Positions 24,509 to 31,335 of a stretch of 64,000 bases of DNA are shown here, piece after piece; the first letter of the stretch is position 1, and every line of letters starts with the position of its first letter. Made by a program: the position numbers and the translations under genes. Under the pieces are notes generated by a model. The model searched no databases, was not told the DNA's origin, and was given only the letters and a program-made list of their open reading frames with translations. Source of the stretch: Agromyces seonyuensis (GTDB lineage: Bacteria; Actinomycetota; Actinomycetes; Actinomycetales; Microbacteriaceae); NCBI RefSeq assembly GCF_009789225.1, contig NZ_WSTA01000003.1, positions 26,202 through 90,201 of the forward strand, given 5' to 3'.

Positions 24509-24753
24509 GGTCGAGCAGCGACGCAGGAGCGTCTCGAGACCCCGCAGGCCGACCCACGAAGGTCTCGATACGGCGCTGGCGCGCCTACTCGACCAACACC
24601 CCGTCGGTCGAGTAGCGACGAAGGAGCGTCTCGAGACCCCCCACGAAGGTCTCGATACGGCGCTGCGCGCCTACTCGACCGACGCCCCGTCGGTCGAGTA
24701 GCGACGAAGGAGCGTATCGAGACCACGCGGGCCGACCTGCCGAGGTCTCGACC
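24509..24753. repeat. Intergenic inverted repeat element, locus E
   Basis: The 300-base gap between the second IclR gene and dctP holds three forward copies with the CGACGAAGGAGC core (near 24509, 24606 and 24691) alternating with inverted copies having the GGCGCTGGCGCGCC-type core near 24561 and 24648. It is a mosaic of two core types. A separate terminator hairpin follows at 24760-24788. Confidence 0.9.
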
Positions 24754-26459: not shown

Positions 26460-27250
26460 CGGGATGCTCCTTCCCTGCGCGAGTGCGCATCGAAGAACGC
26501 GCCGAGCACGGCGGCGGTCGCGGCCGGGCGCTCGGCGGCCGGTAGGTGGGCGGCATCCTCGATCTCGACGAGCTCGGCGTTCGCGACGCCCGACGCGATC
26601 TCGCCGGCCTTCTCGACCGGAGCGACCTGGTCGTGCTCGCCCCACACGACGAGCAGCGGCGCCTCGATCCCGCCGAGCTGCTCGCGCACGTCGTACGCGG
26701 CGAGCGCCTCGCACGCGAGGGCGTAGCTCTCATCGTCGGCGTCCTGCAGCACGTGCAGCAGCCGACCGGTCAGCTCGGGACGGTCGGCGACCGACGTCGG
26801 CCCGAACCAGCGCTGCGCCGACCCGCTGATGAGGCTCGACGTGGACTGCGCCCGCACCTGCGCGGCGCGCTCGCGCCAGGATTCGGGGGTGGCGAGGCTC
26901 GCGCCGGACGCGAGGACCGCCGCCGCGTCGACGAGGTCCGGATGCCGGAGCAGCAGCTCGAGGCCGGTCGCGCCGCCGATGGAGATGCCGGCGTAGAACG
27001 CCTGGCCGCCGAACTCGGCGATCGCCGCCGCAACGGCGTCGGCGAGCTCGCCGATCGTGAAGGAGTCGGTCGTCGCGGGCGCGGCCCCGTGGCCGGGCAG
27101 CTCCCACGCGGTCACGCGGTAGCGGTCGGCCAGGAGCGGCACGACGTCCTCCCAGAGGATCGCCGAGGTGCCGAGCGAAGGCCCGAGCACGAGCAGCGGC
27201 GCGCCGGCGGGGCCGACGGGTTCGGTGAAGCGCAGCACGGGGACGGTCAC
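26456..27250 (-). CDS. pcaD: 3-oxoadipate enol-lactonase
   Basis: A 264-residue alpha/beta hydrolase. The opening VLGPSLGTSAILWEDVVPLL (residues 21-40) is characteristic of PcaD, Ser90 in AGISIGGATG is the nucleophile, VVWGEHDQVAP near 211 supplies the acid and AAHLPAAERP near 236 the His. It hydrolyses 3-oxoadipate enol-lactone to 3-oxoadipate. The start GTG 27250 overlaps the pcaB stop (GTGA) and follows GGAGGAACC. In some actinobacteria pcaD and pcaC are fused into pcaL; here they are separate, overlapping genes. Confidence 0.92.
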   Translation of the reverse strand: MTVPVLRFTEPVGPAGAPLLVLGPSLGTSAILWEDVVPLLADRYRVTAWELPGHGAAPATTDSFTIGELADAVAAAIAEFGGQAFYAGISIGGATGLELLLRHPDLVDAAAVLASGASLATPESWRERAAQVRAQSTSSLISGSAQRWFGPTSVADRPELTGRLLHVLQDADDESYALACEALAAYDVREQLGGIEAPLLVVWGEHDQVAPVEKAGEIASGVANAELVEIEDAAHLPAAERPAATAAVLGAFFDAHSRREGASR

Positions 27251-28833
27251 GGTTCCTCCAGCGGTTCGGGTTCCAGGATGCCCGATGCGGCGGTGCCGAC
27301 GGCATCGTCGACGAGCGCTCCGGCGAGGCCGGTGTAGCCCGCGGGGTCGGCGAGGGCTGGGTCGAGGCCGCGCGCTTCGAGCACGGCGGCGAGGTCCCGC
27401 TCCGTCGGTCGAGTCGGCGCGCCGGCGCCGTCTCGAGACGCTCCTCCGGCGCCGCGCGACCGGCGGGTCAGGTCGTCGAGCACCTCGCGAGCCGTGTCGG
27501 CGCCGAGCACGAGCGAGAGCCGTTCGGCGAGGATCGCGCCGTGCGTGGCATCCAGGTTGCGGGCGACGGCTGCGTCGTCGACGCGCAGCCCCTCGGCCAG
27601 CCGTCGGCCGTTCGCCGCGGCACCGAGCGCGAGGCGCAGCAGCTCCCGCAGGGTCGGCCACTCGGCGTGCCAGGCGCCGTCGGGGCGCTCGTCGCCCGCG
27701 AGGGCCGCCGCGAGGTGCAGCGTCGACGCGAGGCCGGGGGCGCGCAGCGCGGCGGAGCGCAGCAGCACCGATCCGGCGGGGTTGCGCTTCTGCGGCATCG
27801 CCGACGAGCCGCCGCCCGCGCCTTCGGCGAGCTCGCCGATCTCGGTGCGGCTGAGGGTCGCGACATCCGTGCCGATCGCACCGAGGGCGTCGAGCACGCC
27901 GGTGAGCGCGTCGCCGAGTTCGGTGACGGGCCAGCGGGTCGTGTGCCACGGCGCATCGGGCACGGCGAGGCCGAGTTCGGCGGCGAAGGCGGCGGGCAGT
28001 TCGGCGGCGCCCTCCGGTCCCGCGAGCTCGACGAACGACGCCAGCGTGCCGCCCGCGCCGGCGAGCTGGGCGGGCAGGGCGAAGCGGGCGTCCTCGAGGC
28101 GCGCGGCCGCACGGCGGAGCCCGCGGAGCCGGTTCGCGATCCGCAGGCCCATGGTCATCGGCACGGCGTGCTGGGTCAGCGTTCGCGCCGCGCCCACGGT
28201 GTCGCGGTGGGCCGCGGCGAGCCGCGCGAGCGCCCCCTCGACGGCCCGGAGGTCGTCGAGCACGAGCCCGGCCGCGCGCGCGGCGACGACCATGAGGGCC
28301 GAGTCGAGCACGTCCTGCGAGGTCGCGCCGCGATGCACCCAGCGTCGGCCGTCCTCCGGAACGGCGGCCTTGAGCGCGCCGACGAGCGGGATGACGGGGT
28401 TGCCGCCGGCGACGGCCTCGCGCGCGAGCACGGCGGGGTCGAATCCCGCCGGTCGAGTCGGCGCCCCGGGGTCGATTCCCGCCGGTCGAGTCGGCGCGCC
28501 GGGGTCGATTCCCGCCGGTCGAGTCGGCGCGCCAGGGTCGACTCCCGCCGGTCGAGTCGGCGCGGCAGCGCCGTATCGAGACCCCTGAAGGTCCGCTGCG
28601 GGGTCTCGAGACGCTCCTTCGTCGCTCCTCGACCGGCGGAACCGGGCGAGTCCGTCCTCCACCGCAGCCACCTCATCCGCGGGCGCGAGCCCGATGCGCT
28701 CGTACGAGCGCGCGAGCGCGATCTCGACGGCGACGAGCGCGTCGAGCACGGCCGCATCCGAGACGGCGTCGTCGTGGCCGGCCGTCACGGGCGACAGCAG
28801 GCCGACGTCGATCGGGGCGGGCTCAGAAGGCAA
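27247..28833 (-). CDS. pcaB: 3-carboxy-cis,cis-muconate cycloisomerase with repeat-encoded insertion
   Basis: A member of the fumarase/aspartase superfamily, with GATSQDVLDSALMVVAARAA near residue 169 and the signature SSAMPQKRNP near 327. It closes 3-carboxymuconate to 4-carboxymuconolactone. It is about 528 residues, against roughly 450 usual. The excess is explained by the repeat element: residues about 66-130 are encoded by one copy plus four 33-base tandem units (GAPTRPAGIDP type), and residues about 457-480 by a second, shorter copy. Reading frame is kept in both. The start is taken as TTG 28833, overlapping the pcaG stop by 11 bases; no ATG or GTG fits. Activity of the product is uncertain. 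Confidence 0.85.
   Translation of the reverse strand: MPSEPAPIDVGLLSPVTAGHDDAVSDAAVLDALVAVEIALARSYERIGLAPADEVAAVEDGLARFRRSRSDEGASRDPAADLQGSRYGAAAPTRPAGVDPGAPTRPAGIDPGAPTRPAGIDPGAPTRPAGFDPAVLAREAVAGGNPVIPLVGALKAAVPEDGRRWVHRGATSQDVLDSALMVVAARAAGLVLDDLRAVEGALARLAAAHRDTVGAARTLTQHAVPMTMGLRIANRLRGLRRAAARLEDARFALPAQLAGAGGTLASFVELAGPEGAAELPAAFAAELGLAVPDAPWHTTRWPVTELGDALTGVLDALGAIGTDVATLSRTEIGELAEGAGGGSSAMPQKRNPAGSVLLRSAALRAPGLASTLHLAAALAGDERPDGAWHAEWPTLRELLRLALGAAANGRRLAEGLRVDDAAVARNLDATHGAILAERLSLVLGADTAREVLDDLTRRSRGAGGASRDGAGAPTRPTERDLAAVLEARGLDPALADPAGYTGLAGALVDDAVGTAASGILEPEPLEEP
27407..27461. repeat. Repeat element copy inside pcaB, 3' part
   Basis: GGTCGAGTCGGCGCGCCGGC, then GTCTCGAGACGCTCC and a decayed end GCGCGACCGGCGG. 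It is a GC-core copy fused to part of an inverted copy. In the pcaB frame it encodes RRSRGAGGASRDGAGAPTRP, about 24 extra residues with no stop. Confidence 0.8.
28438..28634. repeat. Repeat element block inside pcaB, 5' part, with 33-base tandem units
   Basis: Four tandem 33-base units (GGTCGAGTCGGCGC, then CCGGGGTCGATTCCCGCC) lead into a complete GC-core copy ending GTATCGAGACC. An inverted copy, GGTCTCGAGACGCTCCTTCG to CTCCTCGACC, follows at 28601-28634. This is the same hairpin arrangement as in intergenic loci, but it lies within an open reading frame. Confidence 0.9.
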
Positions 28834-31127: not shown

Positions 31128-31335
31128 GGTCGAGTAGCGACCCACAGCCGGTCGAGTAGCGACCCACCGCCGGTCGAGTAGCGACGAAGGAGCGTATCGA
31201 GACCCCGCCACCCGGTCTCGATACGGCGCTGCGCGCCTACTCGACCAACGCCCGCCGGTCGAGTAGCGACGAAGGAGCGTATCGAGACCCCCGACCCGCC
31301 CAGGTCTCGATACGGCGCTCCGCGCCTACTCGACC
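31128..31335. repeat. Intergenic inverted repeat element, locus G
   Basis: Lies in the 316-base gap between two co-directional genes (iclR and pobA). It contains truncated half-copies (GGTCGAGTAGCGACCCAC) twice, two full forward copies and two inverted copies with GC-type cores. The remaining 98 bases to pobA carry no gene and presumably hold its promoter. Confidence 0.9.

What the first reader, a model, noticed from the sequence alone, without database searches (positions are those of the whole stretch)
28438..28634. Intergenic repeat element inserted in-frame inside pcaB
The hairpin element found between genes elsewhere also lies inside the pcaB reading frame: a forward copy, an inverted copy and four 33-base tandem units encode about 65 residues including four 11-residue repeats (GAPTRPAGIDP type). 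A second short copy at 27407-27461 encodes about 24 more. Both insertions keep frame with no stop. The protein is about 528 residues against roughly 450 for the family, and PcaB is required for the pathway around it. Protein-coding use of intergenic palindromes is known from Rickettsia (RPE); I know of no description for this family.
Basis: partly seen in the sequence, partly recalled or inferred. Interest (0 to 1): 0.78.

Follow-up and report, generated by a model that had tools for sequence, protein, structure and literature searches.

The report
Hairpin repeats written into bacterial enzymes
In a bacterium of the genus Agromyces, a short hairpin DNA repeat that is scattered through the genome also sits, in the correct reading frame, inside a gene for breaking down aromatic compounds and inside several unrelated genes of its relatives, where it would add floppy, repetitive stretches that these proteins likely tolerate.

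Summary
Confirmed and extended. The lyase gene of the pca operon (PcaB by context) carries a typical copy of a genome-wide hairpin element: a head-to-head pair plus three extra 33-nt half-site units, about 65 codons, and a second, degenerate copy of about 18 codons. None of the 119 best-listed homologous proteins has the main insert. Both flanks have coding composition, the inserts do not. AlphaFold2 gives the main insert as disordered on a well-folded lyase. It is not isolated: of 76 element clusters in 630 kb of this genome, 3 lie in frame inside genes (this lyase, CcsB, an ECF transporter ATPase). Other Agromyces carry such inserts in MetH (3 of 20 species), IucA/IucC, a CysN-like GTPase and a Snf2-type ATPase. 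Arrays inside these genes have 33- or 39-nt periods; 56 of 101 arrays elsewhere are not multiples of three. REP elements' Y1 transposase is absent (0 of 60 Agromyces genomes), so the mover is unknown. Protein-coding palindromes are known from Rickettsia, and intragenic REPs from other bacteria; my searches found no description of this family. Whether the long protein is made, active or better for its insert is untested; it departs from conserved positions more than most homologues.

The parts
27247..28833 (-). Lyase gene of the pca operon (PcaB by context), 528 codons, TTG start
   Evidence: Open frame; Pfam Lyase_1 92.1 bits, cut-off 27; fold closest to CreD and 3-carboxy-cis,cis-muconate cycloisomerases; neighbours PcaHG-, PcaD- and PcaC-type
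28444..28638 (-). Main insert, about residues 66-130, absent from 119 listed homologues
   Evidence: Alignment; codon-position GC 0.81/0.80/0.66 inside against 0.84/0.48/0.91 and 0.84/0.57/0.94 in the flanks; AF2 pLDDT under 50 at residues 77-127
28550..28583 (+). Forward element of the head-to-head pair (34-nt type)
28584..28601 (+). 18-nt spacer of the pair
28602..28634 (+). Inverted element of the pair (33-nt type)
   Evidence: the same variant occurs at 10 further places in the genome
28434..28564 (+). 33-nt half-site array, 4.0 copies, read on the - strand as 11-residue repeats (VDPGAPTRPAG / IDPGAPTRPAG)
   Evidence: Tandem Repeats Finder; codon listing
27407..27461 (+). Second, degenerate copy of the element, about 18 codons of the lyase gene
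24606..24680 (+). Head-to-head pair outside the predicted genes, same two element types as in the lyase gene
   Evidence: gene prediction
31172..31246 (+). Head-to-head pair outside the predicted genes, same two element types
   Evidence: gene prediction

Best explanation
The extra roughly 65 residues of this pca-operon lyase are encoded by a copy of a genome-wide hairpin element, a head-to-head pair plus three further half-site units, that lies in frame inside the gene, was likely inserted there by an unidentified enzyme, and would be translated as a predicted disordered surface loop that the enzyme likely tolerates. Shown: the element, its frame, its absence from the examined homologues, the non-coding composition of the insert between coding flanks, and recurrence of in-frame elements in other genes and species. 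Inferred: a mobile unit, probably the pair, lands at many places; insertions inside genes persist where the element is open in the local frame, the net length is a multiple of three and the site is a variable loop or linker; half-sites with a piece of neighbouring sequence then duplicate in tandem, and inside genes only periods divisible by three (33 or 39 nt seen) are kept. Neutral tolerance rather than benefit is the default reading.
For: Element in the genome: 178 exact copies, control 0. Pairs in 55 of 76 clusters; the lyase pair is of the class (34,18,33), the most frequent with 7 occurrences against 6 for each of the next three. Absent from 119 homologous proteins, from 80 named relatives' loci and from 24 other loci. 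Flanks coding, insert not. AF2: mean pLDDT 80.6, insert under 50 at 77-127, surroundings mostly over 85. Recurrence in frame: CcsB and a double ECF ATPase in the same genome; MetH in 3 of 20 species, ECF ATPase in 2 of 30 loci, CcsB in 1 of 30; IucA/IucC and the C-terminus of a Lys/Orn monooxygenase; Snf2-type ATPase with two 39-nt arrays inside the Pfam SNF2 domain, and a GTP_EFTU protein, from a survey not selected by the lyase peptide. Arrays in genes: 33, 33, 33, 33, 39, 39 nt; elsewhere the first period is divisible by three in 15 of 41 and 30 of 60.
Against: No transcript or protein data. The lyase mismatches 8 of 170 columns that are at least 95% conserved, and only 3 of 119 homologues do as badly, which fits weak relaxation or plain distance. 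The public gene call starts inside the repeat. No mobilising enzyme found. My test keeps only open frames, so it cannot show that insertion prefers frames, and the multiples of three in genes are partly a consequence of that test; arrays outside genes are themselves enriched for them in one survey (30 of 60). MetH of G008 and G015 and the G027 genes were found because their inserts resemble the lyase peptide.
Confidence: 0.8

Rival explanations
1. The insertion has broken the gene: translation starts at or after the repeat (as the public 420-residue record has it) and the product is inactive.
For: P0002 begins within the array. The lyase departs from conserved columns more than 116 of 119 homologues.
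Against: The frame is open throughout; residues 7-64 upstream keep median 56% identity to homologues and coding composition; 86 of 88 columns identical in all 119 others are kept; no second copy of this lyase was found (next own-genome full-length match 35 bits against 1,082). Losing residues 1-108 would remove two confidently predicted helices.
Confidence: 0.12
2. The sequence is an assembly or sequencing artefact in a repeat.
For: The genome is a draft of 169 contigs with hundreds of copies of the element, and this contig carries several.
Against: The insert sits inside a 90 kb contig with unique flanks in frame on both sides; 33-nt units differ at single bases; frame-keeping inserts recur in genomes of 1 to 50 contigs (G188, G008, G015, G181).
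Confidence: 0.04
3. The loop grew by ordinary replication slippage of native codons and resembles the element only because GC-rich linkers look alike.
For: Linkers of CcsB, the ECF ATPase and MetH vary widely in length in this genus without any element, and one MetH has an unrelated short repeat (L109). Part of each 33-nt unit repeats the native F-D-P codons.
Against: The insert contains a complete pair of the frequent class; 4 half-sites with no mismatch in the MetH of G008; the short copy scores 27 against at most 14 in 3,543 coding windows.
Confidence: 0.03
4. The inserted peptides are useful: the element supplies new linkers or interaction segments that selection keeps.
For: The same MetH linker holds elements in 3 of 20 species and arrays expanded in several unrelated genes.
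Against: No conservation test of the inserts was possible; they keep non-coding composition and sit in linkers that vary anyway.
Confidence: 0.1

Closest known systems
Rickettsia palindromic elements (RPE) in protein-coding genes
   Same: Palindromic repeats found between genes and also in frame inside unrelated genes (passages of PMC10969869 and section 15 of PMC3733652 seen; the original Ogata papers not held)
   Different: Other host, GC-rich unrelated-looking sequence (not compared by alignment), smaller unit of 27-34 nt used in pairs, half-site arrays inside genes
GTAG and CGTC REP families, BIMEs and REPINs
   Same: 27-34 nt stem-loops in high copy, inverted pairs, arrays that include flanking DNA, TAG of the repeat used as stop codon, some copies inside genes coding for 43-82 residues in clusters (PMC3733652, section 15 and passages)
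   Different: No Y1 transposase in 60 of 60 Agromyces genomes; GTAG lies at the foot of an inner stem but inside a further GGTC/GACC arm; the terms Actinobacteria, Microbacterium, Clavibacter and Leifsonia do not occur in that paper's main text

Membership tests
GTAG REP / BIME | Short (20-40 nt) stem-loop in high copy | tested here: met
   27- to 36-nt forms, 178 exact copies; RNA folds of four forms -6.7 to -17.7 kcal/mol; as single-stranded DNA the 27- and 33-nt forms fold no better than shuffles
GTAG REP / BIME | GTAG tetranucleotide at one end of the repeat | tested here: inconclusive
   GTAG is next to the inner stem, but six bases from the outer end of the element
GTAG REP / BIME | Associated RAYT (Y1 transposase, PF01797) | tested here: not met
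   0 of 60 Agromyces genomes; 5 of 14 control genomes ring; 1 of 40 in the mixed sample
GTAG REP / BIME | Mostly outside genes, often as inverted pairs | tested here: met
   73 of 76 clusters lack coding signal on both sides in one frame; pairs in 55 of 76
Rickettsia palindromic element (RPE) | In-frame presence inside unrelated protein genes | tested here: met
Rickettsia palindromic element (RPE) | Sequence relationship to an RPE family | not tested
   No RPE sequence was fetched; the claim is works like, not is, an RPE
3-carboxy-cis,cis-muconate cycloisomerase (PcaB) | Fumarase/aspartase-type fold and Lyase_1 domain | tested here: met
3-carboxy-cis,cis-muconate cycloisomerase (PcaB) | TIGR02426 curated cut-off (355.75 bits) | tested here: not met
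   318.5 bits; four homologues without insert also fall short, 329.2 to 345.9, so the shortfall is shared with relatives. NF052556 (nitrosuccinate lyase) scores 335.5, cut-off 650. I therefore call it PcaB by operon context only
3-carboxy-cis,cis-muconate cycloisomerase (PcaB) | Position in a pca operon | tested here: met
   Dioxygenase_C twice, alpha/beta hydrolase, CMD and IclR-type neighbours by Pfam; pathway roles recalled

The most novel reading that the evidence does not exclude
A hairpin family without the Y1 transposase keeps writing peptide into the proteins of a whole genus: pairs land in linkers and loops of unrelated enzymes, and their half-sites then grow by frame-keeping duplication into 11- and 13-residue tandem repeats, so that selfish palindromes are a running source of new disordered repeat segments in proteins.
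Probability: 0.35. Interest if true: 0.72.

Novelty: new variant of a known kind. Interest (0 to 1): 0.52.

Why it matters
It carries protein-coding palindromes from Rickettsia and a few REP-rich bacteria to a family of actinobacteria, with natural comparisons at hand: the same MetH linker with no element, a perfect pair, or an expanded array in different species. That makes the origin of tandem-repeat and disordered protein segments from mobile DNA directly testable, asks what moves a REP-like element when no Y1 transposase is there, and warns annotators: the public record of this gene starts inside the repeat and drops its conserved N-terminus.

Tried and rejected
REP of the ordinary RAYT kind: rejected because no Y1_Tnp was found in 60 Agromyces genomes. 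Loss of GTAG as a sign of life inside a gene: all six main half-sites in the lyase gene lack GTAG, and so do the MetH copies of G015, but the same variants occur outside genes (11 GGAG/GTCTC copies in the genome, one of them the lyase's; CGACTCGACC arrays), and copies in MetH of G008 and CcsB keep GTAG, so I draw nothing from it. Exact 33-nt period as a rule: rejected, since the Snf2 arrays have 39 nt and the first four were partly selected by resemblance to the lyase peptide. Shared descent of the MetH inserts of G008 and G015: left open. In the survey of 60 stretches (74 clusters) a third hit (L242, score 8.7) has only 20 codons before it and may be upstream of its gene, and the N-terminal pair of the CysN-like gene may also precede the true start; neither is counted. 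Cut-off for 'in gene' was set after seeing a gap between 16.5 and 5.1. Two half-site pairs in L078, L082 and L053 with high scores look like chance matches in ordinary codons and were dropped. First scan used another clustering and reported 75 clusters with 2 in genes, missing the lyase; the corrected scan is. Two regex look-ups of linkers and one alignment gave partial or wrong rows because loci were not oriented; replaced. Literature: searches found no description of this family; four 10-11-base pieces of the element hit 10 papers, none of which has a title about such repeats, and none of those papers was opened. Seen: PMC3733652 section 15 and passages; passages of PMC12306157, PMC10969869, PMC5217419 and PMC2817692 (the last gave no occurrence); the rest as listings.

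Full report
What is there. The gene at 27247-28833 (-) has one open frame of 528 codons from a TTG. Its product matches Pfam Lyase_1, and its predicted fold is closest to CreD and to 3-carboxy-cis,cis-muconate cycloisomerases. It lies among two Dioxygenase_C genes, an alpha/beta hydrolase, a CMD-family gene and an IclR-type regulator, a pca operon by recalled pathway knowledge. It misses the curated PcaB cut-off (318.5 of 355.75 bits), but so do four homologues without the insert (329.2-345.9), so I call it PcaB by context. The genus is Agromyces by two matches of contig length: G008 with Agromyces sp. CF514 and G035 with Agromyces sp. H66.

The element. GGTCGAGTAGCG...CGTATCGAGACC occurs 178 times exactly in the 3.9 Mb draft, control 0, and in 25 of 120 genomes sampled from the family. 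In an alignment of 20 forms the outer 12-base arms are fixed, while three inner pairs change on both sides in 8, 6 and 7 sequences. Copies usually form head-to-head pairs (55 of 76 clusters) and carry tandem half-sites with periods from 9 to 54 nt. No Y1_Tnp (PF01797) was found in 60 Agromyces genomes, with 5 of 14 control genomes positive.

The insert in the lyase. On the + strand, 28550-28634 is a pair of the class (34,18,33), the most frequent in the surveyed stretches with 7 occurrences, the next three classes having 6 each. Three extra half-site units make a 33-nt array read as 11-residue repeats. Part of each unit repeats the native F-D-P codons, as if a half-site had been duplicated with neighbouring sequence; arrays that include flanking DNA are described for REPs (passage of PMC3733652). 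Between residues 62 and 130 the window protein has 69 residues and 119 homologues have 1-17, without the element's peptide signatures; these 119 are the best listed of 6,820 matches. No element cluster was found in 80 named relatives' loci, nor in the 24 other loci. GC by codon position is 0.84/0.48/0.91 before, 0.81/0.80/0.66 inside and 0.84/0.57/0.94 after the insert. AlphaFold2 (120 sequences) gives mean pLDDT 80.6 with residues 77-127 under 50. The coding-strand RNA of the pair folds at -50.9 kcal/mol, z -3.9. The second copy (27407-27461) is real by score, but its region is hardly longer than in the longest homologue (33 against 32).

Recurrence. A coding-potential scan of 35 stretches of the own genome (630,092 bases, chosen because they hold exact elements or matches to the insert peptide) found 76 clusters. 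Three have coding signal in one frame on both sides: the lyase, CcsB and a double ECF ATPase (names). Against relatives, the ECF linker holds at least two half-sites in 2 of 30 loci and the CcsB loop in 1 of 30; the MetH linker in 3 of 20 species, G008 with a perfect pair, G015 with a degenerate pair and four half-sites, and G032 with one inverted element in another frame. G027 has arrays in an IucA/IucC gene and at the C-terminus of a Lys/Orn monooxygenase. A survey of 60 stretches chosen by intact arrays only gave 74 clusters and two clear cases: a Snf2-type ATPase with two 39-nt arrays inside the SNF2 domain match, and a GTP_EFTU protein (CysN by recall).

Frame. The six arrays in genes have periods 33, 33, 33, 33, 39 and 39 nt; elsewhere the first period is divisible by three in 15 of 41 and 30 of 60. 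The second figure is itself above one third. The six were selected for open frames, and four were found by resemblance to the lyase peptide, so I read this as frame being kept, not as a test of it.

Against the reading. The lyase mismatches 8 of 170 columns conserved at 95% or more; 3 of 119 homologues do as badly. It keeps 86 of 88 columns identical in all 119 others. The public gene call starts in the repeat. Nothing here shows expression.

Mechanism. I take it that a mobile palindromic pair inserts widely, that copies inside genes survive where frame and fold allow, and that half-sites then multiply by slippage or unequal exchange. The enzyme is unknown. Benefit is not needed to explain the pattern.

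Known or new. Frame-keeping palindromes are known from Rickettsia (passages of PMC10969869) and intragenic REPs from other bacteria, with clusters coding 43-82 residues (PMC3733652, section 15). The family, the lack of a Y1 enzyme and the expanded coding arrays in several unrelated enzymes make this a new variant of a known kind.

Noticed in passing
34 stretches of the own genome plus the window: The TAG of the element serves as stop codon of a predicted gene for 30 of 239 exact half-sites, as reported for GTAG REPs.
   Followed up: partly
window 27247-28833: The public protein record P0002 starts inside the repeat and lacks the conserved N-terminal part.
   Followed up: yes
   Followed up: partly
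   Followed up: partly
L109 (MetH of G187): The MetH linker carries an unrelated short peptide repeat (SSSLSP type), so this linker also grows without the element.
   Followed up: no
G116, listing: Elements with fixed outer arms and long inner stems that vary but stay complementary, as if the inner hairpin were selected for shape only.
   Followed up: partly
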